Notes under the pieces: generated by a model | Databases searched by the model: none | Seen by the model: only the letters and a program-made list of their open reading frames with translations | Told to the model about the DNA's origin: nothing | Shown here: positions 14,601 to 43,120 of the stretch, piece after piece | Numbering within the stretch: the first letter of the stretch is position 1 | Layout: the number at the start of each line of letters is the position of its first letter | NCBI GenBank assembly: GCA_036936605.1 | Contig: JAUPFV010000002.1 | Location: 246,967,305 to 247,031,304, forward strand | Direction of reading: 5' to 3' | Length of the DNA stretch: 64,000 nucleotides | Source of the DNA: Limnanthes douglasii subsp. nivea | Taxonomy: Eukaryota > Streptophyta > Magnoliopsida > Brassicales > Limnanthaceae | Position numbers and translations under genes: made by a program

Positions 14601-17235
14601 ATGTTCACAGCCATAAATGCATCGGTGAAAGGAGGTTGGCTAAATTTATCTGATTTGGAAAGATCAAGAAGAGACGCAAGAGTTGTAGCTGGACTCCTTG
14701 CCTCTCCTGGTGGAGAAATCAATCAATCAAAAGCAAGCACAGACCAGAGCTCATCATCATCAAAGACATCAAAATTTAGAAAATCACATTTTGTCCCAAC
14801 CCTATCCCCCTTACAATCAAGGTCTTCAGTTCAAGAGTCCCAAAACCCTCTACCTAAAGATAAGGTAGTTTCCAATGTTAGGAAACCTTCACATTTCCTG
14901 GCCATGGTTTCAGATGCTGAGAAATCCACTCCTCGCAGGGTAATTCGTCTGTCTAAAGCCAAAAGTACTCTTTCTTCTTCGAAACCTGCCAGTTAAGAGA
15001 CAATAAAGCTCCCAACAGATACCATACCGTCCAAACAGTAATCAAACGTGATGGAGGAGACCATGGAGGACAATACGGGAGGTACTCATTTCGGGACGTC
15101 CAGATAGACAGATAATAATAAAGGGGATCAGACAACCGGATTAAAAGTGGCCTTATCCAATCCTGATGCACTTTCGGAGTATCTGGAAGGGAAAGTTAGG
15201 CCAAAATTCCAAAAGGTTAGTGTGAAATATTTGATATCCCTTCAAAACATTACTTATATATATACCCATACTGCTGAGTTGGGTCAGATCCGAACAAAGT
15301 GGAGTTTCCCTGAATCTGTTAAAGTGAGTATTGCAGTCACTTCAGAGACCCTCATGGATTGTAAATCCCACCGAGTTGGTGGTATATACGAAGGTGCTCA
15401 ATTGGGGCCTTCGTTTCCTCTAGACCCAGAAATTGTCAGGTATTTGCACCTGGTTAAGTTATGTCCAAGTCAACTGAGCCCAAATGCATGGTATACGTTG
15501 ATGGCTTGTATAATGGCATCTAGATTGTCAAAAATTCCTCTACCCATGGAGAAATTTGCTTATGTGGCTGGTCTATGCAGAAACCACCATATTACTTTTT
15601 ACCACTACAACATAGACAGTGATTTCAAGGTGGTAAGCGATATGTTGGAGTCCGAGAAACCATGGAGGACACAATTCTTTTTTATCAGTGGGGCGTGGGA
15701 GAATGGAAAAAAGATAAACTCCACCACAAACCCAAGCCAGCTAACTAGCCGCTGGAAAAGTTCAAGTAATACTTGATCTTATTTTTATTGATTTCTTAAA
15801 TGTTATGTTAATATTCCGAACTGATTATTGTTTTTTTGTTGTAGTATTGGCAAAAAGGTTTTTGGAGCACCTAGAAGCAGGCCAGCCTACATGTACCAAG
15901 TTAAACGAATTGGTATTAGAAAGATGGGGGAAACGGTTTCCACAATTTCTTTACTTCTGGAAACTTTGTAAGGTCTCACCTCTGGAATACTATAGGGAGT
16001 AGAGATCTTACTTGGGAGCAGCTGGCCACTTCTCCTCCTGCAGATGTCATTCTGAATAGTACTGAGGCTAAGGATAACAAACTTTACTTTCATTCCCGTA
16101 ACAAATCCCTTAGCCACATGGACAAGATTAAGAATAAGAAGAATAAAAAAACCAAAATTGACCCATCTCAACAAATCACCGAAGGGGTCAGTTAGGTAAA
16201 CCAAGGAGGAATCAATACCGATTTGCTAGAGGAAATTGAAGTTATAGTCAAGGAAGCTGGTGGATCTGATCATCCATCCCAAATTACAAGAAAGGATCAT
16301 AAGAGGCGCAAGGTGAGCAATGACGAAAGAACTGCAAAGAAAAAGAAAAGTTGCTTAGGGTCAGAGATAATTCTACGACCTTCTGAACTTCCTCCTCCCA
16401 TTCATACTGATCCTCCTCCACAAGAATAAATTACACATAACCTTATTTAACAAACATTCCTTCCGGTCGAATGGGCAACTGCCGAAAGAGATGTTAATCT
16501 GGATTAATTTCAAAACATGTATTTTCGTGATCTGGACAAGGACGACTTCGTGAAGCCTTATCCTCATACCAATGTGGGGAAATGTTGTGACCCATAACGG
16601 TGAGACATATGTGATATCAAGCAAACAAGATACTCTGAGTCATGCCCTCTTAGGTTATATCCGTTCGATAGTTGACCTAGAAAGGCAAGTGAGGGAACAA
16701 ACAATAACCATAACCTCCCTAACCACATAAAATCAGGGCTTAAAGAGTAGTCTCTCCACTGCTCAATAAAGTATAGAATCCTTAAATAAGGAAAAAGAGG
16801 ACTTAGCTGCCGAACTGCGCCAGTCAAAAGATGCTCAACAAGATCTCCAAACCAAGTATTTCGCACTGGAAACTTCTTCATCTACCGAGATAAATTTTTT
16901 GAAAGAGCAACTAGATGCCAACGCCAGTATTGTCAAAGATTTATTAGAAGAAAAAGTTAATTTGGGGAAGCTTCTCAAAGAGAAAACAAATGAGAATGCT
17001 TCTTTAGTAAGCAAGTAAGCCTAAGAAATAGTTGCATGAATAGATAGGTATGCTACTGAAGTGGTGGATTCTTTGGAGAAGAGAGACGATGGGGTTAAAT
17101 CGGACATGGTTTTGCTATTCCACGAAACATTTAGTGCAAATGAATCTTGATCCTTTGTGGAAATATGTACCGTATGAGGGAATCCCCTTCCATACCATGT
17201 CAGTTGGTGACAAACATGGTTATTCTAGCGGATAA
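14601..17235 (+). pseudogene. Gypsy-1 antisense additional ORF (aORF), spliced layout
   Basis: A gene-like unit opposite to pol. From ATG 14601 an N-terminal part of 131 residues rich in S/K ends at a stop (14994). After a degraded linker, 15147-15765 carries the conserved domain of plant retroelement additional ORFs (LCPSQLSPNAWYTLM, IMASRLSKIPLPMEKF, FFFISGAWENGKK). A 79-base GT-AG intron (15766-15844) precedes exon 2 (LAKRFLEHLEAGQ..., to a stop near 16000). Next come a basic NLS-like cluster (HKRRKVSNDERTAKKKK, about 16300-16350), a proline-rich piece and a coiled-coil-like region (about 16740-17020). Stops and frameshifts break it. I assign it to the gypsy-type transposon/Transposase_28-like family tentatively. 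Function unknown. Confidence 0.75.
15766..15844 (+). other. Intron in the Gypsy-1 aORF
   Basis: GTAATACTTG at the donor, a T-rich stretch, and TTTTTTGTTGTAG at the acceptor; 79 bases; phase 1. Splicing joins the WKSS end of the conserved domain to the LAKRFLEH start. The Gypsy-2 copy has an intron at the same place and phase. Confidence 0.75.
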
Positions 17236-17338
17236 GATTTTGAGGAAGGAACCGGTGAGAGCTCAAGAGTCCCAAGAAAGATGATGGTGATAAAAAAAAC
17301 CGAAAAGAACACACCCTAAGGTTGTAATGTTATGCTGT

Positions 17339-17445
17339 GTGTTTTTTTAAAACTAAAGTCCTTGGACGGCCAAGGCATTTTGTTGTGTTTTTTTTAATCT
17401 TGTCTTAAGAACCAAAGTCCTTGAATGGTCAAGGCATTTTGCTGT
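17339..17445 (+). repeat. Two-copy direct repeat in the Gypsy-1 3' region
   Basis: A phrase on the theme TTTTTTTAA-CT-AAGTCCTTG followed by GGTCAAGGCATTTTG-TGTG occurs twice (about 17343-17384 and 17390-17445). It lies after the aORF and may be part of its 3' untranslated region. Confidence 0.6.
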
Positions 17446-17768
17446 GTTGTGGATCGGATTTGTTCCGATCAAATATTAATATTGCATTTTTTTATGAACT
17501 CAACAGTCTTCTTTCGGTCAATGTTTGAAGTAATTTTTCAATATATCTAATTTGTTAAATAAGTGTTTAATAAGTGTTGAACGAATCCAATCACAAGTGT
17601 TTAATAAACGTGATCAAGTATTTAAGAAATCCGATCAACTCAAATATACTTCATTTGAGAGCGGGGTGTTTAATGAATATTAAATCTATCTGATCACCTC
17701 ATACTATAATCACAAATTTTGCACCAGAATTTTGAAGAAGACAAAAAATATTATTGAAAAACCCGGAC
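17446..17768. other. AT-rich stretch of the Gypsy-1 3' region
   Basis: Degenerate repeats of GTGTTTAATAA and CGATCAA-type words; no coding motif. Confidence 0.4.
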
Positions 17769-17816
17769 ACCTCGTTAAAACCTCATCGTGCCACCAGGGT
17801 AGGAAAAAGTATGCCC
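17769..17816 (-). other. Conserved non-coding block after Gypsy-1 pol
   Basis: The block ACCTCGTTAAAACCTC-TCGTGCC-CCAGGGTAGGAAAAAGT is matched by Gypsy-2 at 36445-36492. On the pol strand it reads CTACCCTG...GGTTTTAACGAGG, a type of conserved block met after pol in many plant LTR elements. Confidence 0.65.
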
Positions 17817-17867
17817 CCTTAATATTTACATTAAAGTATGAGAAAGGTAAATATTTGCAAGAGAGTT

Positions 17868-18900
17868 TTATTCTAAATATAACCTGAGATGTTCAATGTT
17901 CCATGGGTGCTTTAATGTTTTGCTCTCTTTGTCTTGAAGTCTATATGTCTCTGGCTTGACTTTTGCACATACCACATGAGGACCTTCCGAGTTTAGATCC
18001 AGCTTTCCAAACTGTTTTTCTTTAGTGTGCAAAAAGACTTTCCTCGAGACTTTTGTTTCCCAATTGAAAATATCTTCTTTTAACTTTGGAGGCAAATCTG
18101 CGCCTCATTAAACCCTGATAGTATGTTGTTCTCAAATGTGCTTTGACTCTTCTCTCTTCAATCAAGTCCAACTGGTTCCTAACTTCCATATCATTGGTCT
18201 GTTCGGAATAGCTTTGGATGATGAAATATGGTAAAGTATCTTCTATGGGTGTGATTGCATACATGCCATAAAGAAGAGCAAAAAGAGGATTCTTATGTAG
18301 CAATCCGAGGAGTAGTTCGGTAAGCCCACAGTAATTCTTGCAGATAACTTGGCCATTTCCCTACAGCTCCTTCCAGATTATTTTTTAGCCCAGATATAAT
18401 TGTTTGATTAACAACTTCAACTTTTCCATTAGCTTGAGGGTGGAATGGAGAAGAAAAACAGTGTTGAATTCCTCTGGAAGTACAAAATATTTCCATGTAT
18501 TTATTATCAAATTGTGGCTCATTATCTTTAGTGATCTTCCGGGGAACTCCAAATCTGCAACATATGTTGGATAAAATAAAGTTTATAACTACCTTAGAAG
18601 TAGTTCCAGCTAAGGGAGCTGCCTCTATCCACTTGAAAAAATAGTCAATAGCAACTATTATTGTTCGATATCCACCGAATGTCATGGGAAGAGGCCCAAC
18701 CAAATCCAACCCCGTTTATCAAAAAGGTATTTGTTCAGATATGGACTCTATAAGAACTGCTGGCACATGGATTTGATTCCCGTATTTCTGGCAAGGATCA
18801 CACATTTTGACCATATCTTTTGCATCTGGCATTATTGTTGGCCAATAATACCCGGCTAATAAAACTCTTCTGGTTAAGGCCTTATAACCACAATGTGCAT
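17868..18900 (-). pseudogene. Gypsy-1 integrase
   Basis: On minus: the zinc-binding region (HYGEGYAHCGYKAL, GYYWPTIMPDAKDMV, CDPCQKYG, about 18900-18770), the catalytic core (MDLVGPLP, AIDYFFKWIEAAPL, NEPQFDNKYMEIFC, FHPQANGKVEVVNQTI, about 18709-18390) and the C-terminal region down to 17868 (GPHVVCAKVKPETYRLQD). The second catalytic Asp motif, normally TDNGPQF, reads KDNEPQF, so the Asp is kept but neighbours are changed. Stops and a frameshift near 18715 and 18300 break the frame. Confidence 0.88.
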
Positions 18901-20227
18901 AACCTTCTCCATAGTGTAGTTCGGATAAAATATTTTGGGATTCTTCAAATCCTAAACAATGCAAGAGATGTATGCTAAATAATTTTTTATGAAGAACTTC
19001 TTTCAATACCAATAAACCACGAGTTTTGTTCTTAATTTTCTTAGTCATGGCTTTATTCGGAGGAAAATTCCCATCAGAAATGAATAGAAAGATATCATAC
19101 CTCCAATATTTGGGTTGGATGACAAATATGCTCATACTCTCTTCATTCTCTTTACCCTTTGCTTGGCTTGTTTGTATTGATGGACACTCTAGCATTATAA
19201 TCCATGGGTAAGACTCAAAATAGGCTATCGTTGCTAAAGATTCTGGCACATTATTCATCGATCTAAGGATATGTTCATACTGGATACTTTTAAAATTTGC
19301 AGCAACTTCTCTTAACATGAGAAAATATGTTATCAATTGTTCCTTCTTTGCCTTAGATTTCCTTTGAGCATGGTGAATAAGTAGTTAGGAGTCACTCATT
19401 AATCAGACTATTCTCTCCCCACATATAAGGGCTAGCTTGAGACCAGCTATAGCTGCTTCGTATTCATATTCACTGTTGGAGGTCCTGAAACCAAAACATA
19501 TAGCCTGGTACATAGTATCACCATAGAGAGAAGTTAAACGAATTCTAGCCCTACCCCTCATAGTACTAGACCTACCATCAATTCGGACTACCCATTCTAT
19601 TTAGACTGGTTTTCTTGCCTTTGTCCGGGGGCCTATTAGCATGAAACTCTACATGAAAATCAGCTACTGATTGAGCATTAACTGCCGTTCGGGGGGCAAA
19701 GTCAATATCATAATCACCCAGCTCAACTGACCACTTGGTCATTCTACTTGATATATCATCATTTTGGATAACATTCTTCAGAGGAAAATACGTTCGAACA
19801 ACAATATAATGAGCTTAGAGGTATGGTCTCATTTTTCTTGCTGCGATTACCAATGCCAAAGCCAACTTTTCTAACTCCAAATATCTTTTTTCAGCATCCA
19901 ACAGACTTTTGCTAATATAATAAAGCGGACGGGGGTAATTGTCCACTTCTCTTACTCGCACAACACTTACTGCATACTCAGAAACAGCTAAGTATATATA
20001 AAGTTTATCCCCTGAACAAGTTTAAAGAGATTCTTGGGTGAAGACAAATGTTTCTTGATCTCAAGAAATACTTGATCACACTGCGAGGACCAGTTAAAGT
20101 CTTTGGCATTCCTTAATACCTGGAAAAATGGATCACACTTGTCTAATGATCTTGAAATAAACATGTTCAACGCAGTTAACCGCCCGGTTAACCTTTGGAA
20201 TTCTCTAGTGATCCGAGGAGGGTCCAT
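18901..20227 (-). pseudogene. Gypsy-1 RNase H and archaeal-type RNase H
   Basis: The minus strand shows the RT/RNase H connection (RITREFQRLTGRLTALNMFISR, about 20210-20145). The RNase H remains follow (RMLSKMMIYQVE-type wording of the family phrase, about 19800-19690), then a second RNase H of the archaeal type (WVVRIDGRSS, GFRTSNSEYEYEA, about 19615-19440) ending near 18960. Dual RNase H places the element in the Tat lineage. Numerous stops. Confidence 0.78.
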
Positions 20228-21060
20228 AGCTAATAGAGCATAACTAGGAGGGTTCCTTTTTCACTTATAACATAACCCAAGAACTTTTCAGACCGGACCT
20301 CAAAAACATATTTCTCAGGGTTTAACTTTAAATTGACAACCTTTAAGTTAGAAAACGTCTCTTGAAGATCAGATATATACACATCTTCTTCAAGGCTCTT
20401 CACCATCATGTCATATATATAAAATTCCATATTTCCTGCCAATCTGACTAACAAAAGTTTTATTCCTAACCTTTGATAGGTGGCCCTAGTATTATTTAAT
20501 CCGAATGACATCACTTTATAACAATGAAGACCTTTATCCGTAATAAAAGTGGTGTGATGTTGATCCTTCAGATTTACTTGTATCTGGTTGTACACTGAAA
20601 ATGAATCCATGAAAGACAATAGTTTGTTCCCGGAGGTAGAATCCACTAGCTGATCTATCCGAGGAACGAGATAAGGATCTTTGGGACATGCTCTATTATG
20701 ATCAGTGAAGTCAATACACATGCTCCATTTTCCATTCTTTTTCTTGACTAAAACAGGATTGGCAGTCCATAATGGGTACTAAGATTTCTTGATATGGCCC
20801 ATTTTGGTCAAGCGATCAACTTCTTGAACAATTGCATCTGCCTTTTCCTTAGAGAAAGAACTTTTCCTTTCTAAAACTGGTCCCACATCCGTTCGTACCG
20901 ACAACTTATGATAAATTAAATCAGCATACACTCTGGTGACATCATCATTACACCATGCAAATACATGTAGATTATCTGATAAAAAATATAGTATTCTTTG
21001 TTTTAGACTTGGTGCAAACTAGGTACCAATTTTAACAGTTTTTCCCTCAGCTAGGGAATG
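20228..21060 (-). pseudogene. Gypsy-1 reverse transcriptase
   Basis: Minus-strand frame with MCIDFTDHNRACPKDPYLVPRIDQLVD, FMDSFSVYNQI, CYKVMSFGLNNTRATYQRL and LNPEKYVFEVRSEKFLGYVIS. The catalytic motif, normally Y-x-D-D-M, reads YIYDM (about 20410): the first Asp is now Tyr, so this RT is dead at the active site as well as truncated. Confidence 0.88.
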
Positions 21061-21315
21061 AATTTCAACTTCCTCTATATGTATTATGACACTAGGAGCC
21101 TCCATGGGATCATCAATCTCATTCTTATAGGTGGAAGGCTCCAGTAGATGCTAATCTTTGTTAACCTTGACTGCCTCTAAATATTTCAAGGCATTAGTTG
21201 TTGCATAACATTCCCTAGCTACCTTTTGACTGCTTCGAACAACTCCCACTTGTCCCTGCACAACATATTTTAAGCATTGATGGATAATAGAATCCACATG
21301 ATGCATCCTAGAGAG
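21061..21315 (-). pseudogene. Gypsy-1 protease-RT linker
   Basis: Degraded minus-strand linker with acidic and proline-rich remains (EEVEIHSLAE-, PMEAPSVI-like words) matching the corresponding part of Gypsy-2. No intact frame. Confidence 0.5.
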
Positions 21316-21765
21316 CTAAGATCTCCCAAATGTAGTATTATAAGATGTTGGGCAATCCACCACAACAAATAATACCCTCAACATTTTCTTGAAAGGCCCT
21401 TGACCCAACAATACTTCTTCTTCGAATTCTCGAATCACTTCTGTCGAACTCCCTATGAATCCCACAATAGTTTTGTTCAAACATTGAATAACCAAAGGGT
21501 TTCTCATATGTTTGGAGGAGCTTAAGAAAAACATGTTTGCCGAGCTACTTGTGAAAATCAGGAATCGACGTATATCATTTCCTCCAATGGATGCCCCTAT
21601 CACCACGATGTCTTCATGAGGTCCTGAAATATCTACTAGGTCATCCTCATCAAAAACTATGAAAGGAGTTGGAGTTTGGTACAAATGTGTGGACATCCTT
21701 CCATCCAATTGGGTAGTCAGATTATTGACGTTCCTCTTCTTTGAAGAACTGGAAGGTGTAGTCAC
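21316..21765 (-). pseudogene. Gypsy-1 aspartic protease region
   Basis: 150 residues on minus with STHLYQTPTPFIVFDEDDL, PHEDIVVIGASIGGNDIRR, LVIQCLNKTIVGF and VVDCPTSYNTTFGRS. The active-site signature D-T-G-S-S reads FTSSS at about 21555-21569, so the catalytic Asp is lost. The equivalent site in Gypsy-2 still reads DTGSS. Confidence 0.85.
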
Positions 21766-23000
21766 ATTGTCTCCCCCAAATATTGTTAAAGACTCCGGTT
21801 TTCTCCGGGAAACTGTAATGCAACTGGCTTTCTAAATTTTGCTTTATTTTTATTTTTTCATATATCGTAGCCACACTTTCTCCAAACTCAGCAAACCATT
21901 ATGGTTGAACCCAAGGTCCTTTTTTATTTCTCACTTGCTGGTTTTGGTTCTGATTGAACTGATTCTTCCTGGGCCGATGAGACCCATGTCCAGTTTTATT
22001 CGATCTATAACTGGACTGATTAGTTGTTTGTGGTGCTGATGTTGTAATTGTGGATCTGATCTGGCGAGTTACTCTAGACTTCTTGGTTTCTTCAACATTG
22101 ATTTATTTCCCGAATTGATTCAACAACCGTCCAAAGGTCATAACTTTTTTTGGGTCATAGAATCAGCCAAGTTACCTGGATTCAAACCCTTCCTAAGAGA
22201 GGCAATTACCACTTGTTTAAAGCTTTCTGCTAACCCATTCTTAGTGTTTACTAACATGTTGATGTATTCTATTAAAGACTGCTTTGGCTCCTGGGCGCAA
22301 TGGATGGCCGTATCTCCATTCATTTTAAGCTCATTACCTCCACCAAATTGCCTCCCAAAATTAACTCATAATATGTCAAAAATATTTATAGATCCCTAAC
22401 GGAGACTATTATACCATTTGAAGGCACTCCTCTTGAAAGTTTGAGAGAAATCTTTACACAGTAATATGTCGTCATCGTCAAATCTCATTATAAAATTCTT
22501 AAATTGCTCAAGATGGTTGTCCTGATCTTTAGTCCCATCGTATTTTAACATCTGGAACTGTCAAATCTTTTAAGAAGGTGTCTGGAGAGTATTTTTGCGG
22601 ATAAAGGTGATTGCCTCCAGTTTTGGCTACGACTAAACACGGTATTTTGATTTGGAGTAGCAAAAATACCTGGTTCTGATTGGAAAGAAAATGTACCAAT
22701 AAACAAACGATCAATATGTTGATCAGCTGAACCCTTCATTTTTCCCTGATACTTCTTGAGCCTGCCATGTATATTCCTCTTTCTTGAATGATTTTTGGTA
22801 AGCCTTATTTTATTTTTTGAACATCCTTCATCACTGCTGGATGACACTGATTCTTCAAGCTCTGCATCATTAGAGGAGCTGCTGGAGGATTCTGAAGTGG
22901 AACTTTTCACACGTTTTGATCGATGCGTTTTCTTGGAACTTAGATGAGCCTTCATGGACTACTCGTTCTCACCAGGAATATCAGTATGGTGAAGCACCAA
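21766..23000 (-). pseudogene. Gypsy-1 gag
   Basis: On minus: an S/E-rich, basic N-terminal part from ATG 22955 (SSKKTHRSKRVKSSTSESSSS). The retrotransposon gag domain (MNGDTAIHCAQEPKQSLIEYINMLVNTKNG, about 22323-22240) and a basic/Q-rich C-terminal part (QNQNQQVRNKKGPW, about 21950) follow. Several frameshifts. The domain arrangement matches Gypsy-2 gag. Confidence 0.8.
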
Positions 23001-23232
23001 CGCAACAGATTTTTCTTTAACTCCTTTATCTGCATGTTTTAACACCCTCAAAGCCTTAATTTCAGCTCTTAATTGATCTCACTCCCTCAACAGTGTACTC
23101 ATTATTTTCTTTTGCTCATTCCACCTCTAAAGGTGGAGTATTATGTGCATTCGGATCCATCCGAACTGGTTGTTATTATTGGTGTTGAATTTGTGATTTA
23201 GGCACCGTCGCCTCCCACTGTGGTCGTCAATT

Positions 23233-23588
23233 TAGTGTGGATTATTTCTGATCAAAAGGTATTTTTGGAAAGAGTTTTGGGAATTTAATGTTTAGTGTAA
23301 AATGTAGAGACATAAGTAAGGTGTGTGATAGTAGTAAATTCTGATTACCCTCATTAATGAAAGTAGTTTGGGTATTTATACTAATTTGGTGATTCAAGGG
23401 CCTTCCGGGTCGGATCATAGGCTTGGGTTAAGTTCAAAAACCCATTAGCCCAAGAGGTGAAATGACTAGCAACTACTTGAGTCATGATCCACTAAGTTAT
23501 ACTGTTCGGTGGGGCATGGTACCGGATATGTCTGAACTTCCCTCCGGATATATATACTAGTCAATGTCAATGAAATCCAACCTCATCA
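23233..23588 (-). repeat. Gypsy-1 5' LTR
   Basis: 356 bases, TGATGAGGTTGG...CCACACTA on minus. Directly inside it (23232 and lower) is the primer-site region (ATTGACGACCACAGTGGGAG on minus); the tRNA was not identified. A TATA-like TATAAATACCC lies on minus near 23380-23370. Confidence 0.92.
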
Positions 23589-23593
23589 ACGTT

Positions 23594-24416: not shown

Positions 24417-25010
24417 TTAAGACAAATCAACACCAGAGGCAGCAATATCCGACAAGTATGTTTTTCTACCATCAACACCATAGACATCCGCATATGTTAG
24501 TTCGAATTTCTCAAAAACATATAGTTCCCCAATTTTATGATATGTCCCAGTCATTCTATGAGTCTGTTGATTTTGTATAGCACAAACAGAATCAGAAAAC
24601 AAGACACAATAACAAGATTTACACAATTGGCTAACTGAAAGAAGACTCAAAGCAATGGTGGGAACATAGTAAACATCAAATATCGATATATGAGGAGTAA
24701 AAATAAAGCCAATACCTTCTACCGACATTGTTATAGCACAAGAAGATAAAATAGATATGGGTGAAACATGAGACAATGAAACAAAGTTCGACATATGAGG
24801 TGGCATATGATGAGACGCACCCGAATCCAAAATCCACAATGATGAACCAATACATGAAGTAGAAGAAGAGGACATTCCTAAATGGTATGCAGATGTTGAC
24901 ATAACAAAGTTCATCTTATTCAGTTTGTTACTAATAGACTGTAGAAAATAATCTCTTACTATCATATTCACGGTAAGATCCACAATCTCTAATCGAACAA
25001 AATCAAACAA
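24417..25010 (-). pseudogene. Copia-B protease and GAG-pre-integrase region
   Basis: One open minus-strand stretch of 197 residues. WILDSGASHHM (about residues 57-67) is the copia protease active site, with the D-S-G triplet intact. LLSVSQL and the Q-T-(H)RMTGTYHKIGELYVFE block belong to the GAG-pre-integrase domain. The integrase catalytic core that should follow is missing. The frame lacks a natural start and its N-terminal part is atypical. Confidence 0.88.
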
Positions 25011-25245
25011 TCAAGAGATACCAAATCCAAATCGGAAGAATCAAACCAAAAATCAAATCAAAATATTAATCAAACCTCAAATCCAAAATCAAAAGAAGTC
25101 AAAATCAAAATATCAATGGTCCAGCAAAATCAAATCGAATACTCAATCAAGACCAAATCTAAAACCAAGTGCAAATACCAAACTAAATCTAAATACCAAA
25201 TCTGAAACTAAACTTAGTACCAAATCTAAATTCAAATCCAATGTC
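25011..25245. repeat. Low-complexity ATCAAA/ACCAAAT-rich flank
   Basis: Short words ATCAAA, ACCAAATC and CTAAAT are repeated irregularly. It grades into the heptamer array. Confidence 0.7.
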
Positions 25246-26067
25246 CAGTTTCCAATGTCCAGTTTCCAGTTTCCAGTCTCCAGTCTCCAGTCTCCAATCT
25301 CCAATCTCCAATCTCCAATCTCCAATCTCCAATCTCCAATCTCCAATCTCCAATCTCCAATCTCCAATCTCCAATCTCCAATCTCCAATCTCCAATCTCC
25401 AATCCCCAATCTCCAATCCCCAATCTCCAATCTCCAATCCCCAATCCCCAATCTCCAATCCCCAATCCCCAACCCCCAATCCCCAATCTCCAATCTCCAA
25501 TCTCCAATCTCCAATCTCTAATCTCCAATCTCCAATATCCAATCTCCAATCTCCAATCTCCAATCTCCAATCTTTAATCTCCAATCTCCAATCTCCAATC
25601 TCTAATATCCAATATCCAATATCCAATATCCAATCTCCAATATCCAATCTCCAATCTCCAATCTCCAATCTCCAATCTCCAATCTACAATCTCCAATCTC
25701 CAATCTCCAATCTCCAATCTCCAATCTCCAATCTCCAATCTCCAATCTCCAATCTCCAATATCCAATATCCAATATCCAATCTCCAATCTCCAATCTACA
25801 ATCTCCAATCTCCAATCTCCAATCTCCAATCTCCAATCTCCAATCTCCAATCTCCAATCTCCAATCTCCAATCTCCAATCTCCAATCTCCAATCTCCAAT
25901 CTCCAATCTCCAATCTCCAATCTCCAATCTCCAATCTCCAATCTCCAATCTCCAATCTCCAATCTCCAATCTCCAATCTCCAATCTCCAATCTCCAATCT
26001 CCAATATCCAATATCCAATATCCAATATCCAATCTCCAATATTCAATCTCTAATCTCCAATCTCCAA
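25246..26067. repeat. (CCAATCT)n heptamer minisatellite
   Basis: About 117 head-to-tail copies of the 7-base unit CCAATCT over 820 bases. Variants CCAATAT, CCAATCC, CTAATCT, CTACAAT-type and, at the left edge, CCAGTTT/CCAGTCT occur in patches, which suggests expansion by unequal crossover or slippage of blocks. All six frames are open over long distances because 7 is not a multiple of 3 and the unit has no stop, so apparent proteins here are artefacts. It lies in the leader/gag region of Copia-B. Confidence 0.97.
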
Positions 26068-26262
26068 TCAAAATCAAAATCAAAATCAAAATCAAAACCA
26101 AAACCAAAACCAAAACCAAAACCAAAACCAAAACCAAAACCAAAACCAAAACCAAAACCAAAACCAAAACCAAAACCAAAACCAAAACCAAAACCAAAAC
26201 CAAAACCAAAACCAAAACCAAAACCAAAACCAAAACCAAAACCAAAATCAAAATCAAAATCA
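26068..26262. repeat. (TCAAAA)n / (CCAAAA)n hexamer array
   Basis: A few TCAAAA units at 26068-26096, then about 25 uninterrupted CCAAAA units to 26244, then TCAAAA units again to about 26262. The symmetrical edge-centre-edge arrangement suggests the CCAAAA variant arose inside an older TCAAAA array. Confidence 0.97.
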
Positions 26263-26534
26263 AATTGAATTCACGATTTTACCAACAAAACTACTACACT
26301 GTTCCAGTAGCGATTAATCCTGAATCGTAGCACCGAATTATAATTTAACCAATCCGATTGAAGGATTGGATGTCCCAAAGACTCTCTCCTAAATTCAGAA
26401 AAAACAGACACCGTTTGCCTTTTGATCGGACCTTTTGATTGGGATTGCACACAACAGATCCAAAAATTGTATATCTTCTAATGATTTCGTGATCCGATTA
26501 TTTTACAAACAATTATCAAATTAAAGCACAACAG

Positions 26535-26820: not shown

Positions 26821-26860
26821 GACAAATAAATCAATTATATTACTCCAAGGATCGAACATG

Positions 26861-26871
26861 CTCTGCTACCA
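26861..26871 (-). other. Copia-B primer binding site
   Basis: On minus TGGTAGCAGAG(C) directly follows the 5' LTR. It matches the initiator-Met primer site at all but one position. Confidence 0.8.
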
Positions 26872-27024
26872 TGTAAATAAACAAAGAAAGAAAAGAGAGA
26901 AGTAGTCGTCAAGAAGCGGCTAGGGTTTATGTTTGTTTAGAAAGCGTAAGAATTACATAGAACATATGCTTATATTTATAGATAAAATAAAGGCTAATGG
27001 GCTTGAGCCCTTATATCTCTAATA
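26872..27024 (-). repeat. Copia-B 5' LTR
   Basis: 153 bases, matching 13381-13532. On minus it starts TATTAGAG (family TGTTAGAG) and ends TTTACA next to the primer site. Confidence 0.88.
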
Positions 27025-27600
27025 ATTTTAATAGGCTAAGTCTGACAATCATGAAGAAAACAATTCCATTAGTATTCCATGGTGTAGTTCTAACCGAGAT
27101 CACCAATGTGAAAATATTTCTTGATGACGTTGAGAAATGCTTTTACAAGAATGATAAAGTGAAAATTAAGATGTTGCTTATCAATCTAGCCTCTATAAAG
27201 TATTGTGTCAAAAGGAATGTTTGTGAGCGTATCTTCGAAATGTCAAACATTGCTTATAAGTTGAAATCACTTAAGATTGAACTTCCAGAAAATGTTGTAG
27301 TATGCTTCGATTTTCACTATTTCCCTCCTTAATATAAGAACTTCAAAACTCTTTATAACTGTCAGTGCGATAAATGAAATCTTAACGAACTCATTTTCAG
27401 GTAGTGCAAGAGGAGGAAAAGATGAAGCAAGAGTATCATGAGGTGCAAATGGTGAAAGCTCAGATGGATAAGGTAATTATAAAGAATGAAGATTCAGATG
27501 AACATGCATCCGGTTTGGGACAAAAGAAGCATAAGGGTCCGTCCGGTAAAGTATGTTTCTTCCATTATAAGAAACAATGGAACTTTAAGAAACAACGGTA
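27025..27600 (+). pseudogene. Copia-A gag, remaining part
   Basis: It picks up after Copia-B with RLSLTIMKKTIP and the gag core (ITNVKIFLDDVEKCF, KIKMLLINLASIKYC, NVCERIFEMSNIAYKLKSLKIEL, 27036-27290), then, out of frame, the VQEEEKMKQE block (27402-27430). A K-rich linker leads toward a position where a zinc knuckle would be expected; none is readable. Confidence 0.85.
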
Positions 27601-28600
27601 TTGGACTTGATGCATACAAACGTTTGTGGATCATTCTATATAACATCACGAAACGGCCAACGATATTTTGTATCATTCATTGACGACTTTTTGCTTTACA
27701 TGTACTTATATCTTATTCAAAAAAAATCAAAATCCATTGACAAGTTCAATGTATTTAAGAGCAAGGTTGAAAAACACTTGGTAAAGACATTAAGTGCATT
27801 GAATCTGACCATGGTTGCGAATACTACGAGAGATACGATGGTTCATGTGAATAACATCATAGACCGTTTGTAAAGTATCTAGAGAAGTGCATGATAGTCC
27901 CTCAATATATGATGTTGGGTTTGTCCATCATAAATGGATTATCTAGGAGATGAAAAACATTTAGAGATATACTAAAAGTATGATTAGTCATTCAATATCA
28001 GAAATATCACTATAGAGAGAAATAATAAACTGTGCAACCTACCTTTTTAATAAATTTCTGACAAAAGCAACTACTAAGACATTGTATGAACTTTAGATTG
28101 TATGAAAAATCTATTTTTAAGCATTTACATGGTTGGGGATGCACAACTGAAGTGAAGCCTTATAGACCAAATTTAAAAAAATGGACTCTAAAACGGCTAG
28201 TAGTTATTTCATTGGATATCCCAAACACGATAAGGGTGTTAAACTTTATGATTATCCCAATATAAGTATGGTTTAAGATGAGAAAATCATGATTCTTTGA
28301 GGATGTTGAGTTTGAGGGTATATGAGAATTTAAATAGAAATTTTCATTTTTAAGAAGAAAGGATCTAAAAAAGTATGTAATTCATCAAACCAACATATTG
28401 GCCTAAACGAAGCTTGATGGTAGATTGATGATAAAATATACAATGGTCATAAAGCCAATATATCCCCAAAAGAAGATTGTTTGTGGATTGATGCTCATGT
28501 ATCAAATGATTTGATTCATTACCAGTCATTGAAGTCGTGCTAGAACATTAAGTCACTCAAGACAAATATTATCTTGCACATACGGAAAAAAAAATTATTC
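27601..28600 (+). pseudogene. Copia-A integrase
   Basis: HTNVCGSFYITSRNGQRYFVSFIDDF (27612-27690) is the copia integrase core start with its first catalytic Asp region. YLYLIQKKSKSIDKF follows, and after many stops remains such as MISHSI (about 27977-27995) and YFVGYP-like words at about 28205-28230. Heavy decay. Confidence 0.78.
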
Positions 28601-28644
28601 AAATAAGTTCAAACTCTACCTCTTAAGAAAGTGTAAAGTAAAGA

Positions 28645-29321
28645 AATTATGCATTTGTGAAGATTTAATACATAAATAAAGAGTTCTATACCTTCAAACT
28701 ATATAGTGTATCTTTAAAAACATGAAAACTCTTTGGTACAATGGAAAAAAATCCTTAAGTGCCCGTTAAGCCGTGCAAATTTGTGGTTCCCAACTGTGGA
28801 TTAAAACAATGAATAATTGTTTTAAATCGATGCAAGATAACATGGTATAAAACCTCGTTCCATTACCTAAAGGAAAGAATTCGATTGGTTGTAAATAAAT
28901 TTTGAAATCAAAAGATATTCTAAAGGTAATATGAAGCGTGACTTTTAGCTAAGGGTTTTACTTAACGTGAATGAATTGACTTTAAAAAAAACTATCTCTC
29001 TAGTTTCATCATAACGAAGAAACTATACTTTTGTGAATATTTAATAGAAAAAGAGAGTAATATACCTTCAGTCTATATAGTGTATCTTCAAGAATATGAG
29101 GATTTTTTTGGTATAACGGAAAAAAATTATTAAGAGCCCGCTAAGTCGTGAGAAGTTCTGATTCTAAATTATGGATTAAAGAAATGAGCAAATAATTTAA
29201 AATCGATGTAAGCTAATGCGATATAGAAGACCATTTTATTACCTAAAGGAAAGATGTTGATTGTTTGTAAATGGATTTGTAAACGAAACGATGTTCTAAG
29301 AGTAATGTGGAAAGACATCGA
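28645..29321 (+). pseudogene. Copia-A RT start, duplicated in tandem
   Basis: Two successive copies (about 28645-28945 and 29018-29321) of the region that begins with VYLQEYEDF-type residues and includes the LPKGK---CKWI block of copia RT. They differ at many positions. The second is followed directly by a deletion into the RNase H end, so the RT catalytic core is missing. Confidence 0.72.
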
Positions 29322-29439
29322 GCACCAATCGTGGAGGTCATAAGGTATTTTGACTAGCTTCGGTTGTAAAGTTTTGTCATAGGACTGTGAATCGTGGAGA
29401 GGATAGAAAGACATTTTAGATTATATTGTGACAATAATT

Positions 29440-30080
29440 CGGCAGTTCAATATTCAAATAGTAACATAAACTTGATTTAGTCCAAACATGTAGATATCGA
29501 TTTCCTGTATTTTAAAGAGAGTTCAAAGTGGTAAAATAAGTATATAGTACATAATAACAAACCCAAATGTTAACGGCTCCTCTTACGAATGTATTAGTGC
29601 CTAAGTATTTTATTTAGCATATCATTAATATGAGTGTTGTGTATTTGGAGGATTGTTAGTTTCAGTCGGAGTTTGTACTAATTTATTGGATGTGTTTGTA
29701 TTATGATAATCGCACACTTAAGTCTATTAATCCAAACATATTTTTATATAAGTATTCATTGTGCTCTCATCTTTGATTACTTGGATTTTGTTATAAGTAG
29801 ACCTCCAATTAAGTAGGATTAATTAAGAATATATATGTAAGAATATAAATCATGTTATTATTATGTTATGCACCATGATAGATCTGTCTCATTGATTGTT
29901 GCGATATCGTGATTACTTATGCATCTATTTGCGGCTTTTAATGTATTGAGAATGACTTTAGTCCTATGTCATTAATAGTCATTTACGGATTGTTAAATCT
30001 ATCTATGTGACGATAGAAATTAAGAACGTTCATTAAGTGGATACATTCTATAGTAGCATATGGTTATCCAAGTGAGAGAT
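29440..30080 (+). pseudogene. Copia-A RNase H end and 3' untranslated region
   Basis: KHVDIDFLYFKE (about 29485-29520) is the conserved end of copia RNase H. The rest to 30080 is AT-rich 3' sequence. CAAGTGAGAGAT (30069-30080) directly before the LTR is the polypurine tract. Confidence 0.72.
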
Positions 30081-30744
30081 TGTTAGAATTTCTCAATTGA
30101 GTTGGGCTATCACATGTTTTATCGATGTATCAGACTATCGTCAATATTAGTCTGATAAAAGTAATCATAAAAATAAGTAACAGACTAGTAAATAAAATAT
30201 AAATCATGGAGGTAACTGTATAGTTACCAGGTTAGCTTATGAATACTGTAAACGATTGGATTCAGATATAAACAACTTAAGCATAACGTAAAGTTTTAGG
30301 ATTATTTTGTAAGATAAAATAATATCGGAATATGGTCCAAAATGTGGCAATTTAATAAGATATTGTATTCATTTAGTTTATAGGTTTGAATTTGAATTTG
30401 AATTCGAATCATATACTATTGAAGTAATTACTTACAATTTTAATAAAAAAATATATTTTTATAGTTTTGATATAATACATTGATTCTCACGATTGTGAAA
30501 ACTAGTCTTTTAGAAATTTATTCGTTCTTAAATCAAGAGATCTGGTTGGCATCTATCTTTTAGATAATTCAGTAATCAGTGTTAAAACAACGAAATGAAT
30601 AACAAAAGATCAAAAATCATTATCAAGTTTATCGAACAAAATCTGAAAAACAGACATCATCATATAAGTCCACTTTTCGCATCATTATATGGTGATTTAT
30701 ACTTGTAGATATATAAACTAATTAAAAATATGAAATTTTGAACG
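30081..30744 (+). repeat. Copia-A 3' LTR
   Basis: 664 bases, starts TGTTAGAATTTCTC and aligns with the split 5' LTR. It keeps the uninterrupted sequence ATATAAACTAATTA (30711-30724) where the 5' LTR has the Pack-MULE. The end is placed at AACG 30744 by comparison with AACA at 11720. Confidence 0.8.
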
Positions 30745-30912
30745 CTAAGTTCGATATCGTCTATGTTAAATTAGGGTACTTTTCACACAACATTTGTAAT
30801 CTTATATTAGAATGAAACTACTAATATGTACAAATGACAATTCTTTGAAGAAACCAATCTCTGATCCTTCCCATTTTTTCACTCTTAACTCCTCTCTGTT
30901 TCAGCTCCTCTG

Positions 30913-32101
30913 ATGGATAAATATGGCTGCTCCTCTTCTTACCAAAGATCTACTGATCTTGATCTACATTTCCCACCACTACAACAACAACAAAACAATC
31001 TAAGTATCAGAAACAATCTAAAATTCGAAAGTGCTACAAGTAAAGATTCAACTATGCATGATAAGCCTACTAAATCTTTTGCATAATTGTTCTCTTCTAA
31101 ATCATAAAAGATCATTCATCAAAATGTTGTGCACAATCTTGATTATGAGTTCCCTAGTATAAAATTTGAAGCTATAGACAATAGAAGACTGGAGGCTATA
31201 TCCAAGCATACGATTGTTGGGAAATTCTCGATGGGTAAACCAAGTTTTGAAATTGTCAAGAAATTCTTGGAGAATTTCAGATTTAAGGGTGATTTCAGTA
31301 TCACTAACCTGGACTACAAACATGTATTTATCGAGTTCAACCTCCTAGATGATCTTAAAACTCTTTGGCACAGAAATGTATGGCATGTTGGGAATAAAAC
31401 TATGCGCCTTATCAAATGGGGGCCTTTTTTCAATATAAATTATGAAAAACCTATAACCCCTGTCTATATAAACTTTCCCAACCTCCCTGAGTATATGTAT
31501 AATGAGACTACTATCATGAAACTTGCAAAGAGCCTTGGCTCTCCCCTGAACATCTGGGTTTCGGGAAAGATTCAATTATTGTAGAGTCTGGGTGGATATG
31601 AACGTTTCTAAACCTATGTCTAAAATGATATGGGTTTCATTTGGTGATGAAGGCCTTTGGAAAGACCTTGTCTATGATTCCTATCCAGAATATTGCAAAG
31701 CCTACTACCACCTTGGTTATTTTGAGAAACATTGTAAAAAATTAAAACAAATTGTTACTTGTGATAAATCTTCTACTTAACCTTCTGCTCAACTTGCTGC
31801 TCATCCTCCATTACCAAATTGGATGATTTCTTATTAAACCCTACTGCAAAGAACAATAAACCAATAACTAATAATCAGAGCTCTTCAAGAATAAACTCTA
31901 TTATTGTTAACAGGTCGTACAACAGATACTAATGATATCACATATCCTAATCCTATTCTGATACCTGAAACCAATGTTAATGTGAACTTACTAGTTGGAG
32001 TTGAAGACTCGGAAGTAGTAGAGGCTCTCCACATGATTACCTTGGTACTCTGAATCACTTAAATCCTTACACAGAAACTACTCAACATGAGAACTCATCC
32101 C
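30913..32101 (+). pseudogene. LINE ORF1, first part
   Basis: From ATG 30913 (MDKYGCSSSYQRSTDLDLHF). A stop at about 31084 is followed by the DUF4283 domain (31150-31580: RLEAISKHTIVGKFSMGKPS, FKGDFSITNLDYKHVFIEF, WGPFFNINYEKPITPVYINF, ESMYNE-like ending). The zinc knuckle region reads PEYCKAYYHLGYFEKHCKK (about 31690-31745); one expected Cys of the CCHC pattern is Tyr. ORF1 proteins bind LINE RNA. The rest of ORF1 continues at 42571 after Gypsy-2. Confidence 0.88.
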
Positions 32102-32459
32102 TGATGATGTTTGATTTTGTTATAGTAAATTGCTAAGGAAAAATTCTAGAGAGAGAAAATGCTTAAGAGTTTTTAGAGAGAGAAAACACAAGTGCAAATG
32201 AGTTAAAAGTAAAAGTGTTCAACCTCTTTATTAGAGTAGTCTGGTCCTTTATATAGAGGAGCCAAGACTTAGTCTCAAACTGAATCTATTACAAAAGTGG
32301 ACTAATTGTCGTTTAATCCTTATAAATTATACAAAGTTACAAATATCCTCTAAAACTTACACTAATCACAAATTAAAGACAAAAATTACATTAGTTATAA
32401 TTAAATCCCTAAATTTACATTATTTATAAAATAATCCTTAAAAAATTATTTCCATATGA
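32102..32459 (-). repeat. Gypsy-2 3' LTR
   Basis: 358 bases, TGATGATGTTTG...CCATATGA on +; aligns end to end with 42208-42565. Inside lie AGAGAGAGAAAA repeats and CTTTATATAGAGG (about 32252-32264). Confidence 0.95.
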
Positions 32460-32937
32460 GAAGCCACCTTAGTTCTCATGTTAGTAAATGAATGAGAACT
32501 AAAAAGTCTTCAAAACCGCTTGTCTTCGAATCGTCAACCTGTCATGAATCAAAAAAACAATTTATTCGAAGCCATTGTCTTCGAATAACCAACCTGCCAT
32601 GAATCAAAAATAACTATTTGAAGCCATTAGCTTAATCTATTATTCGACGCATATATACAATATAAAAGCTATAAAAGCTTAAAAACATATTCGAACCAAT
32701 AGACAAATAATCTTCGAATAGTAACCAAAGGAATCGATGTAATCACTTTGAAAAAAAATTCCCTTAACGTATTATGTAGATAGACCATCCTCAAATGTAA
32801 CGGTTACATACGTAACGGTTATATTCATCCTTGATGTAAACCTGACAGGTGTCGAACATCTAGCCCACCCATCGATTCATATTCCAACCTATCACCAAGT
32901 GGGTCTCTCCATCTTCACACGTCTTCACCTATTTTAG

Positions 32938-32945
32938 TATAAATA
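32938..32945 (+). promoter_or_regulatory. TATA box for the Gypsy-2 antisense unit
   Basis: TATAAATA lies on the strand opposite pol, 167 bases before the ATG at 33112. AGAGAGAAG follows at 32990-32998. Upstream, GTAACGGTTA occurs twice (about 32798 and 32813), a MYB-type motif pair. Confidence 0.55.
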
Positions 32946-33111
32946 CTCTGTATCTCTCATTTCAACTCTCCTTACACAAAACCACTTTAGAGAGAAGTTG
33001 GAGCTTTTTTGGCTACCTTTATCTACTCCTCCCCTATTCCCAGAATTCTCACCGCAAAACTCGAATTTTCTGATCAATCTTCATCTTATCCGATCAACCC
33101 ATACCTGGTTT

Positions 33112-35946
33112 ATGACAAAGAAACCAATAATAAAAAAGTCGAAGGCCATTCTTCCCAAAACACCAGAATCCTCTGATACTGACATCAACCTAGTGTTTGG
33201 ATCTTACGATTATTTCTGTATAACGCAAAGAGACGAAGAATATCAAAGAGCGGGGTTAATTTGAAGTGGTCCAATTGGAACTACAACTGAGACATTTTAT
33301 TACGGTAATTTCGATCCTACCAAAGTCCCAAAGCTTTCTCCTTCTCCTAAAATCGAAGAACAAACGTCATCTAGAATCTCAAGCCCTAAAACACCTCGAA
33401 CATCCTCAACTCAAAGCAAAGTTTCTCCTCTGAAATTGAAAACAAATAACCCTTTCTCAGGAAAACCTTCTTTAACGAAACCAAGAAAGACCTTCATCTC
33501 AATGGGAGACGAATCAACAATCATCTGAACTCCTTCTCCTTCAAAAACCACTACGAATGATCCTCCTCGGAGAGAAGTGATAGAAGAGGCAGTTCGAACT
33601 ACTAGCCCTCTTATAGAAACAATTATTTCAAAGCCAACGAAGCAGACTTGGAGGCTACGAAAACCGATGCTGAAGCTGAATCTCAAGAAGAGGCTGACAT
33701 CTGCTCCATTTCCAAGGAGGAAAGAGAAAAAATTGGGAGGAATCTAAGAAACCTCGAAAGCAAGTATATTATCTCATTGAAGAAGGTTCGATATATATAC
33801 TACAGAGAAATCCAAGCCTCTTATCTTAAGAAGCAATGGGGAATGGGGGAAAACATAACCCTTTGACTGCCAAAAGAAGAAGAAACTCCCCTCGACTGCA
33901 AGGACGATGAGCTAGTAGTATACCCAGAAATCATCAACTAGGGTCTTCGATTGCCACTAGATCTGATGATCGTAGAGTACTTCGAAGTCCTCAGTGTGTG
34001 CCCTACCCAGGTGACACCGAATCAATGGTTCACCCTCATGTCGGTAATCATGGCATCCCGCCTATCAAAAATATCGATCAGCATTAAAGATTTCATTTCA
34101 CTAACTCAGCTTTCAAAAGGTCTGAAGCTTCCATTCTATTACCTCACATTAATGGATGACCTCAAGATCAGCGACGATCTTTTGGAGGCTGATAAATTCT
34201 GGAAACAAAGATTTGTTTTCATATCCGGGGCTTGGGAGAATGGAAAGGCAATTCCCAAAGACAATCCTTCGAAATTAACTATGGTTTGGAGAAGCCATCG
34301 TAAGTTCCTCAAAATTTTACATTTTAATACAATTTTTTATTTTCTTATCTTTAACATTTTATCTTGTTGGTATTATACTAGAAATTTCGAAGCGCTACTC
34401 AACACGTCGAGAAGCTGCTAAAGACATATTCCAAAAACTTGCTATCTGGGTTGAAAAAGAATGGAATAACGCATTCCATACTGCCTTTCAGCCCATCAAT
34501 TTCCTCCAATGCCACATGTTTCCGATCAAAGAAGGTGGGCTGCCTCCTAAATTTTTATTTTCAGATCCAAATCTGAACCTCGTATGCCAACGAATACCCC
34601 AGCCCGACTGCAAAGTATTTCTTCTTGTTCGCAACAAATCGGATATCCATCTGCCGAAAAAGAAGAAGGAAAATATCACCAAAGAAAAGAAAGGCAAAAA
34701 GGGAGTTAGCACGTGCTAACCCTTCCACGCCCTCGAAACCAAAGCGTCGAAAACGCAAAGTTCCAGAACAACCTCTTTCACCCATTGAAGAGGGAATTTC
34801 TTAAGAAACCTCGTCGAAGAAAAAGAAAAAATATTCTGATTCCTTCGGAAAGAAAAAGAAACAAAAGAAAATTACTTCGTATAATTTGGTTAATGAACAC
34901 GAAGACGATGCTGCTGAAAATCAACAACACCCCCTAAATACTTCAACCGAAGATCATTCCAACAAAGGCAATCTTGTGATTCTCATTGATGACAATTCGC
35001 CCACCGTTTATCATGCTCCTACAAGCTTCGACCCAAATATGTTTATCGATTTTGAGAACACAGAAGTGCTTGCTGGCGAAGAGGACCTAGTTATTCAAGT
35101 CATCCAAAAGCACATGCTTGATTTTGGGAGGCCTACTCCAGATAAAGAGCTTCCAGAAGTTACTCGTTCTTACGAACCTGTCACATCTCTAGATATGATT
35201 CAAAAGCCTAGTACATCGGAATTTCACAGCCCTCCTCCAAATCCTGCAATTGGTATCGATCTTCAACCATTTTTCGATCTTGGCGCTGCTGCAAAAAATC
35301 TTGCCTCGCAAATTGAAGCCTCTCAAGACCATCTCAAACAGTTGGCTAAAGATATGGTTTACTATAAGGAATCTTATGAGGCTGAAAAGAAATTCAGAGA
35401 GACTTTGTACAACAAAGTAACTGAGCAGTTTTATAGTTATGAGATAGCAAGATCCGAGCTGATAAAGGGCGCTCTCTGTATAAAGGATGATCTTCGAATC
35501 AAGCATATGGTCGACACAAAGATGCTAACAAAGTCTCATGAAGAAAAAATAAAGAAATTCAAAACTGAGCATGTTGCTGAATTGAATATCGAAAATCCAA
35601 CTCTACTACACTTCAAAATTATCTAACTCTTTGTGAAGTAAAAAATAAAGAGTTGACCGATGAAATAAAGAGGCTGAAGAAGAATTTCGAAGCAGAAAAA
35701 TATGTTGCTGTAAATACTACCGAAGCTGAGCTTTCAAAGAATATGCAAACAACTATTCAGGTCGGAAAAGAAGATGCATCCATCCTTCTCCTTCGAGAAC
35801 TCCATGCTGCATATCCAAAAATCAATCTTAAAATTTCTTGGAACGATATTCCTGAAGAAAAACGTCCAAGCGAGGCTTTCGACCCTGTTCCCAGCTCCTC
35901 ATCTTCAGAGGAAGAGTCATCTGAAGAAGAAGAATCTTCTGACTAA
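33112..35946 (+). pseudogene. Gypsy-2 antisense additional ORF (aORF), spliced layout
   Basis: From ATG 33112 (MTKKPIIKKSKAILPKTPES) with stops at 33262 and 33526. Exon 1 holds the conserved retroelement aORF domain (33760-34300: SKYIISLKKVRYIY, VCPTQVTPNQWFTLM, IMASRLSKISISIKDF, FVFISGAWENGKAI). An 82-base GT-AG intron follows (34300-34381). Exon 2 encodes AAKDIFQKLAIWVEKEW, and, after a frameshift near 34700, a basic cluster with PKRRKRKV (about 34738-34763) and KKKKK repeats. An acidic region and a long coiled-coil-like stretch (about 35290-35760, frameshift near 35597) lead to an acidic tail of S/E runs ending at 35946. Gypsy-1 carries the same domain order. Nuclear location is suggested by the basic cluster; function is unknown. 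Confidence 0.8.
34300..34381 (+). other. Intron in the Gypsy-2 aORF
   Basis: GTAAGTTCC donor, AT-rich body, TATTATACTAG acceptor; 82 bases; phase 1. It follows MVWRSH, the counterpart of the SRWKSS end in Gypsy-1. Confidence 0.8.
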
Positions 35947-42755: not shown

Positions 42756-42759
42756 CAAT

Positions 42760-43115: not shown

Positions 43116-43120
43116 ACAAT

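What the first reader, a model, noticed from the sequence alone, without database searches (positions are those of the whole stretch)
15766..34381. The antisense ORFs share an intron at the same position and phase
Seen directly: GT-AG introns of 79 bases (15766-15844) and 82 bases (34300-34381) lie after SRWKSS and MVWRSH, the homologous end of the conserved domain, both in phase 1, with T-rich tracts before the acceptor. The intron sequences themselves are unrelated, so the position is conserved but the bases have diverged. Known: retroelements lose sense-strand introns on each cycle. Inference: because the aORF lies antisense to the genomic RNA its intron cannot be spliced out of that RNA, so an intron can persist over the age of the lineage. 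That is strong evidence that the spliced antisense product is made and matters.
Basis: partly seen in the sequence, partly recalled or inferred. Interest (0 to 1): 0.85.

Follow-up and report, generated by a model that had tools for sequence, protein, structure and literature searches.

The report
Conserved intron in antisense retrotransposon gene
Several long-separated families of a plant jumping gene carry a backwards-facing extra gene that is interrupted by an intron at exactly the same place, which suggests that the backwards gene is spliced into a real protein and has been kept intact through copying.

Summary
Both elements are Ty3/gypsy LTR retrotransposons (Tat-like) with gag-pol on the minus strand and an antisense accessory ORF on the plus strand. 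GT-AG gaps of 79 nt (15766-15844) and 82 nt (34300-34381) lie at one aligned position, W + 3 codons + 1 nt, phase 1. Copies in the same genome extend this far beyond a pair. The gap is present in 40 of 40 sampled element 1 copies, 70 of 70 element 2 copies and 11 of 20 sampled loci matching Pfam Transposase_28 (TRP28). The other nine could not be judged; none read straight through. Three main lineages with 39-51% protein identity, four families in all, share position and phase, while the two window introns are unrelated. In the element 2 family exon 2 shows third-codon-position excess only in the spliced frame (p 1.5e-4), so coding continues past the gap. Best reading: an ancestral spliceosomal intron in a protein-coding antisense gene, kept because it is reversed in the genomic RNA. 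There is no RNA evidence, the search for intron-less copies did not complete, and two key papers were not held, so novelty is provisional.

The parts
13810..14162 (-). Element 1, 3' LTR (element is on the minus strand)
   Evidence: 90.4% identical over 353 nt to 23236-23588
23236..23588 (-). Element 1, 5' LTR
14502..14509 (+). TATA-like box upstream of the element 1 antisense gene
   Evidence: TATATAAA; exact at the expected place in 24 of 40 copies; not more conserved than its neighbours
15108..15765 (+). Element 1 antisense gene, exon 1 with the conserved domain (open up to the donor)
   Evidence: homologous to element 2 and to a TRP28-scoring family
15766..15844 (+). Intron of element 1 antisense gene, 79 nt, GT-AG, phase 1
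   Evidence: present in 40 of 40 sampled copies
15845..16002 (+). Element 1 exon 2, start (the frame of this copy is broken further on)
18719..21831 (-). Element 1 pol remnants (RT, weak RVT_3 end, integrase zinc-binding domain)
32102..32457 (-). Element 2, 3' LTR
   Evidence: 94.7% identical over 356 nt to 42208-42563
42208..42563 (-). Element 2, 5' LTR
32938..32945 (+). TATA-like box upstream of the element 2 antisense gene
   Evidence: TATAAATA; exact at the expected place in 14 of 20 copies; not clearly more conserved than its neighbours
33741..34299 (+). Element 2 antisense gene, exon 1 conserved domain (two in-frame stops in this copy; open from 33942)
34300..34381 (+). Intron of element 2 antisense gene, 82 nt, GTAAGT...CTAG, phase 1
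   Evidence: present in 70 of 70 sampled copies
34382..34719 (+). Element 2 exon 2, first open stretch after the junction
34805..35626 (+). Further open stretch downstream in another frame, probably the continuation of exon 2 in this decayed copy (inference)
38032..42166 (-). Element 2 gag-pol remnants (RT and RNase H matched; the gag part is by position and reading)

Best explanation
The antisense accessory gene of these Tat-like Ty3/gypsy elements is a two-exon gene, probably with its own promoter. Exon 1 carries the conserved TRP28-like domain; exon 2 carries a lysine-rich stretch and a long C-terminal region (by reading). One phase-1 spliceosomal intron, ancestral to at least four families in this genome, separates them at a fixed codon. 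Antisense RNA is spliced to give the full protein. The genomic RNA holds the reverse complement of the intron, so reverse transcription copies the intron instead of removing it, and selection for the joined protein in active source elements keeps the splice sites and both reading frames. Shown from sequence: position, phase, splice ends and coding constraint. Inferred: promoter, transcription, splicing, the protein and its use by the element.
For: Gap at the same codon and phase in four families: element 1 type 40 of 40, element 2 type 70 of 70 (20 of 20, 10 of 10, 40 of 40), families C and D 11 of 20 TRP28 loci. Donor GT: 36 of 40, 20 of 20, 10 of 10, 35 of 37 cleanly scored, 11 of 11 in C and D. 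Acceptor AG in the same order: 34 of 40, 17 of 20, 5 of 10, 35 of 37, 11 of 11. Element 2 family: third-position excess in exon 1 (p 1e-4) and in exon 2 only in the spliced frame (p 1.5e-4; other frames 0.99 and 0.93), not significant in the intron (p 0.11). The modal intron length is held by 5 of 20 copies against 16-20 of 20 for seven exon windows of equal width. In-frame stops in the intron: 40 of 40 element 1 copies, 28 of 37 element 2 copies, where 25 of 37 are also not a multiple of 3. Exon 2 is homologous between element types. In one D-family element the integrase faces the antisense gene as in the window.
Against: No RNA data. Element 1 family exon 2 shows no codon-position signal (93 sites, p 0.33). 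The acceptor AG is lost in 5 of 10 copies of one sample. 6 of 37 introns could be read through. The TATA-like boxes are exact in 24 of 40 and 14 of 20 copies and are no more conserved than neighbouring 20-base blocks, so the promoter is weakly supported. A branch-point motif was not found in one D-family intron. Eight TRP28 loci (L119-L125 decayed, L128 cut) could not be judged and L130 shows a donor but no recognisable exon 2. The window copies do not score with PF04195.
Confidence: 0.8

Rival explanations
1. The stretch is not an intron but a T-rich coding insert, or an exitron that is mostly retained, read in frame.
For: Common lengths are multiples of 3: 78 nt in 37 of 40 element 1 copies, 81 and 84 nt in 9 of 20 element 2 copies. 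6 of 37 element 2 copies are open and in frame through it. The intron has a weak third-position excess in the read-on frame (.14/.125/.18, p 0.11).
Against: In-frame stops in 40 of 40 element 1 introns and 28 of 37 element 2 introns; 25 of 37 are not 3n (the two counts overlap). Lengths run from 69 to 98 nt in the element 2 family and from 71 to 154 nt in family D. Indels are concentrated there.
Confidence: 0.07
2. The intron is real and spliced, but mainly as a switch: unspliced RNA makes a domain-only protein and spliced RNA the long one.
For: Element 1 introns stop translation soon after the domain (40 of 40), while some element 2 copies would read on (6 of 37).
Against: No isoform data; the constraint in exon 2 shows that the long form matters in element 2's family, not that the short form does.
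Confidence: 0.1
3. The antisense RNA acts as RNA (for example as a source of dsRNA), and the intron is a relic with no protein behind it.
For: A review names dsRNA regulation as a possible role of such transcripts (PMC7264820).
Against: Third-position excess in both exons in the frames joined by splicing (element 2 family) and likeness of exon 2 protein between families point to protein.
Confidence: 0.06
4. Independent intron gains at a favoured site gave the same position by chance.
For: The intron sequences of the two window elements are unrelated.
Against: Four families share exact codon and phase at the end of a homologous, mostly ungapped alignment. Fast drift of intron bases, seen also inside the element 2 family, explains the lack of likeness.
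Confidence: 0.04

Closest known systems
TRP28 antisense ORFs of Retand LTR retrotransposons (PMC11963269; passages and part 1 of 2 of section 11 read)
   Same: Antisense ORF between pol and 3' LTR; LTR and internal sizes in the reported range; a TRP28-scoring family of this genome shares the domain and the intron position
   Different: That paper counts 104 antisense ORFs, 57 with TRP28, as ORFs; the word intron has 0 occurrences in its listing. Here the TRP28-like exon and a downstream exon are read as one gene.
gene23 of maize Grande (review PMC7264820, parts 1 and 2 of 3 read; the original paper was not held)
   Same: Antisense gene in the 3' internal region; own promoter and nuclear protein reported
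   Different: The review has 0 occurrences of intron and asks for a look at antisense and spliced transcripts. Whether the original reports splicing was not seen.
[quoted passage not shown]
   Same: Spliceosomal intron in a Tat-clade element
   Different: It lies in the sense strand and is spliced from a subset of transcripts; here the intron is antisense to the genomic RNA.
Group I introns with antisense homing endonuclease genes interrupted by spliceosomal introns (PMC9548176, search listing only)
   Same: A mobile element with an antisense gene holding a spliceosomal intron
   Different: Different element type and mechanism
HBZ of HTLV-1 (named as a nuclear antisense product in a passage of PMC11963269; its splicing is recalled)
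   Same: Antisense gene of a retroelement
   Different: Animal virus; the splicing detail was not checked

Membership tests
Retand lineage (Tat clade) of Ty3/gypsy | LTRs of 315-1,194 bp around an internal region of 7.4-12.9 kb (range in PMC11963269) | tested here: met
   LTRs about 353 and 356 nt; internal regions about 9.1 and 9.75 kb
Retand lineage (Tat clade) of Ty3/gypsy | Second RNase H (aRH) between RNase H and integrase (PMC6317226) | tested here: inconclusive
   RVT_3 end before Integrase_H2C2 in element 1, E 0.009, below Pfam's cut-off
Retand lineage (Tat clade) of Ty3/gypsy | Antisense ORF between pol and 3' LTR | tested here: met
   Plus-strand ORFs between minus-strand pol and the LTR in both elements
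Retand lineage (Tat clade) of Ty3/gypsy | Place in an RT tree | not tested
   No tree was built
TRP28 (PF04195) protein family | Match to the Pfam model | tested here: not met
   Window proteins: no hit up to E 1 or E 10. Family D of the same genome passes the cut-off and is 39-51% identical to the window exon 1 domains, so they are homologous although the model misses these two.
Spliceosomal intron (U2 type) | GT-AG ends kept while the interior drifts | tested here: met
   exceptions counted under evidence
Spliceosomal intron (U2 type) | Joined exons keep one frame under selection | tested here: met
   Element 2 family; the element 1 family was not significant in exon 2
Spliceosomal intron (U2 type) | Branch point 18-40 nt before the acceptor (range recalled) | tested here: inconclusive
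   CTGAT 20 nt and TTAAC 27 nt before the end in the window introns, CTGAC 28 nt in L133, none by this motif in L126
Spliceosomal intron (U2 type) | Spliced RNA junction | not testable with these tools
   No RNA data here

The most novel reading that the evidence does not exclude
The intron is a fossil of capture: the TRP28 gene was once a host gene that entered an ancestral Tat element in reverse. Because its introns were unreadable to the spliceosome in the carrier RNA, at least one survived, was inherited by many TRP28-bearing families, and has been spliced from antisense RNA ever since. On this view many of the separate second antisense ORFs now annotated in Retand elements are exon 2 of one gene, and reversal is a general way for a retroelement to own an intron-bearing gene.
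Probability: 0.3. Interest if true: 0.82.

Novelty: new variant of a known kind. Interest (0 to 1): 0.64.

Why it matters
Antisense ORFs of plant retrotransposons are widespread, but their function and origin are stated to be open in PMC7264820 and PMC11963269. A shared intron means the gene should be read as two joined exons, gives an exact junction to look for in existing RNA-seq, offers an age marker for the gene, and suggests a clean rule: an antisense gene is the one place in a retroelement where an intron is safe.

Tried and rejected
Homologues in public proteins: two searches, 1013 candidates (none at E 0.01) and 4217 candidates (none at E 0.1). IMG/VR with the 119-residue element 2 exon 1 piece: 30 pattern matches, no relative. 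Pfam on the window aORF pieces gave no TRP28 hit. A two-sequence AlphaFold2 model of the exon 1 domain was too poor to use (mean pLDDT 39.9); no fold search was made. A first alignment of eight genome copies mixed strands (4 of 8 unreversed) and was discarded in favour. Literature searches on intron, splicing and antisense ORFs listed no paper whose title or shown abstract reports an intron in an antisense TRP28 gene; the works recalled as Steinbauerova 2011 and Gomez-Orte 2013 were not held, so absence from print is not claimed. Coding-insert, chance and RNA-only readings were weighed and rejected as main explanations for the reasons under the rivals. A genome-wide search for exactly joined exons (two 24-base tags, up to 3 mismatches), which would have found intron-less or processed copies, did not complete.

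Full report
What is there. The window holds two Ty3/gypsy elements on the minus strand: element 1 with LTRs at 13810-14162 and 23236-23588 (90.4% identical) and element 2 with LTRs at 32102-32457 and 42208-42563 (94.7%). RT, RNase H and integrase pieces lie on the minus strand. Between pol and the 3' LTR each has plus-strand, that is antisense, open frames.

The claimed introns. 15766-15844 is GTAATACTTG...TTGTTGTAG, 79 nt; 34300-34381 is GTAAGTTCC...TATACTAG, 82 nt. Both split a codon after its first base. The protein upstream aligns over 215 columns at 37% identity, E 8.6e-39. In the window copy of element 1 the downstream exon is decayed and scores no better than the best shuffle (36 against 37 in 500). 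In relatives the match is plain and starts at the junction without a gap (best 74, median 50 of 90 pairs, lowest 12, against a best of 37 in 450 shuffles; 18 of 40 and 5 of 20 copies were open enough to compare). The two intron sequences are not alike.

Family copies. The genome holding the window (1.78 Gb, 633 contigs) was searched. For element 1, 40 full matches were scored of 6089 candidates and all 40 were fetched, the window copy among them: 40 of 40 have the gap, 37 of 40 with 78 nt, donor GT 36 of 40, acceptor AG 34 of 40, an in-frame stop inside in 40 of 40. That query held 35 intron bases, so this sample leans towards copies with an intron. For element 2 the DNA query stopped at the last exon base: 40 matches of 3016 candidates were scored, the first 20 (window copy included) were read, and 20 of 20 have the gap, donor GT 20 of 20, acceptor AG 17 of 20. 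From the 150 scored protein matches of 67,916 candidates, 50 further loci were fetched. In the first ten, chosen for long open frames or low identity, 10 of 10 have the gap and donor GT 10 of 10, but acceptor AG only 5 of 10 by reading. In the next forty, 40 of 40 have it; one (L088) has lost the start of exon 2. In the 37 cleanly scored rows (L088, L090 and L092 were dropped from the count for weak flanks, though all three show the gap; L090 lacks AG) donor GT is 35 of 37, acceptor AG 35 of 37, lengths 78-98, 28 hold in-frame stops, 25 are not multiples of 3, and 6 could be read through. Copies were not checked for shared duplication after insertion.

Other families. PF04195 gave 150 scored matches of 20,529 candidates, all over the cut-off. 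Twenty of the 150 were fetched. Eleven show the gap with a recognisable exon 2: family D (L126, L129, L131, L132, L135, L137, L138; introns 71-154 nt) and family C (L127, L133, L134, L136; 77-84 nt), donor GT and acceptor AG 11 of 11. Ten of them place it exactly at W + 3 codons + 1 nt, allowing for substitutions; L131 has lost the last part of exon 1 but keeps donor and acceptor. L130 has a donor at the matching place but no recognisable exon 2. L128 is cut off and L119-L125 are too decayed to judge. Exon 1 domains differ strongly: element 1 to element 2 43%, D to element 1 39-43%, D to element 2 48-51%, D to C 44-46%, C to element 2 46-49%; C to element 1 is 63-65%, so there are three main lineages and four families. 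In one D element the integrase lies on the opposite strand downstream, so that gene too is antisense; the other ten C and D loci were not checked for this.

Is it coding beyond the gap? Among the 20 element 2 copies, variation per codon position is .076/.069/.137 in exon 1 (p 1e-4) and .098/.106/.170 in exon 2 in the spliced frame (p 1.5e-4); other frames of exon 2 give p 0.99 and 0.93, and the intron is not significant (p 0.11). Intron length varies far more than exon windows of equal width. Element 1 copies show the signal in exon 1 (p 2.5e-4) but not in 93 sites of exon 2 (p 0.33). Sites were shuffled as independent and relatedness was not modelled, so the p values are rough.

Promoter. A TATA-like box stands about 600 nt before the element 1 exon 1 frame (14502-14509) and about 800 nt before the conserved part of element 2 (32938-32945). 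It is exact at the expected place in 24 of 40 and 14 of 20 copies, but 20-base blocks around it are just as conserved. So a private promoter is possible, as reported for gene23 of Grande (PMC7264820), but not shown here.

How it works. The genomic RNA is minus-strand, so in it the intron is reversed and its sites cannot be used (inference from established splicing). Antisense RNA is spliced and translated. Selection on the protein in active elements keeps frame and sites; dead copies then drift, as lost acceptors and stops show. Whether the RNA is made in this plant is not shown.

Relation to the literature. The Retand survey (PMC11963269) counts 104 antisense ORFs and 57 with TRP28. Some clusters have the domain in an ORF under 600 nt, as an exon boundary could give. 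That second antisense ORFs are exon 2 is my inference. Neither that paper nor the review PMC7264820 has the word intron, and the review asks for work on antisense and spliced transcripts. The two original papers most likely to mention an intron were not held.

Limits. One genome, unnamed; best-scoring copies only; no RNA; no search for intron-less copies was completed; no tree; window elements not placed in a lineage by RT, and their domain is missed by the Pfam model.

Noticed in passing
25100-26330: Long minisatellite with spacing of 14 (at times 21) bases that reads as repeated SNLQSPI-like peptides on one strand, followed by a KT/KP dipeptide run
   Followed up: no
3042-8308: Another element in plus orientation: direct repeats 3042-3417 and 7914-8308, 94% identical, around gag-pol-like open frames 4053-7248 (by reading)
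   Followed up: no
42759-43116: Inverted LTR-like stretch, 76-78% identical to the element 1 LTRs, just outside the 5' LTR of element 2
   Followed up: no
43631-47146: LINE-like reverse transcriptase and RNase H open frames, plus strand (by reading, not tested)
   Followed up: no
50843-53377: Two direct copies of about 1.2 kb (50843-52077 and 52179-53377), 89% identical
   Followed up: no
24417-25010: Minus-strand frame with a DSGASHHM motif, as in Ty1/copia proteases (by reading; motif recalled)
   Followed up: no
14540-14580 and 32985-33005: Both antisense genes have a TAGAGAGA motif after the TATA-like box, perhaps 5' leader sequence
   Followed up: partly
L130:411: A further TRP28-type locus has a GTAAGG donor at the matching codon but no recognisable exon 2 within the 1 kb fetched
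   Followed up: partly
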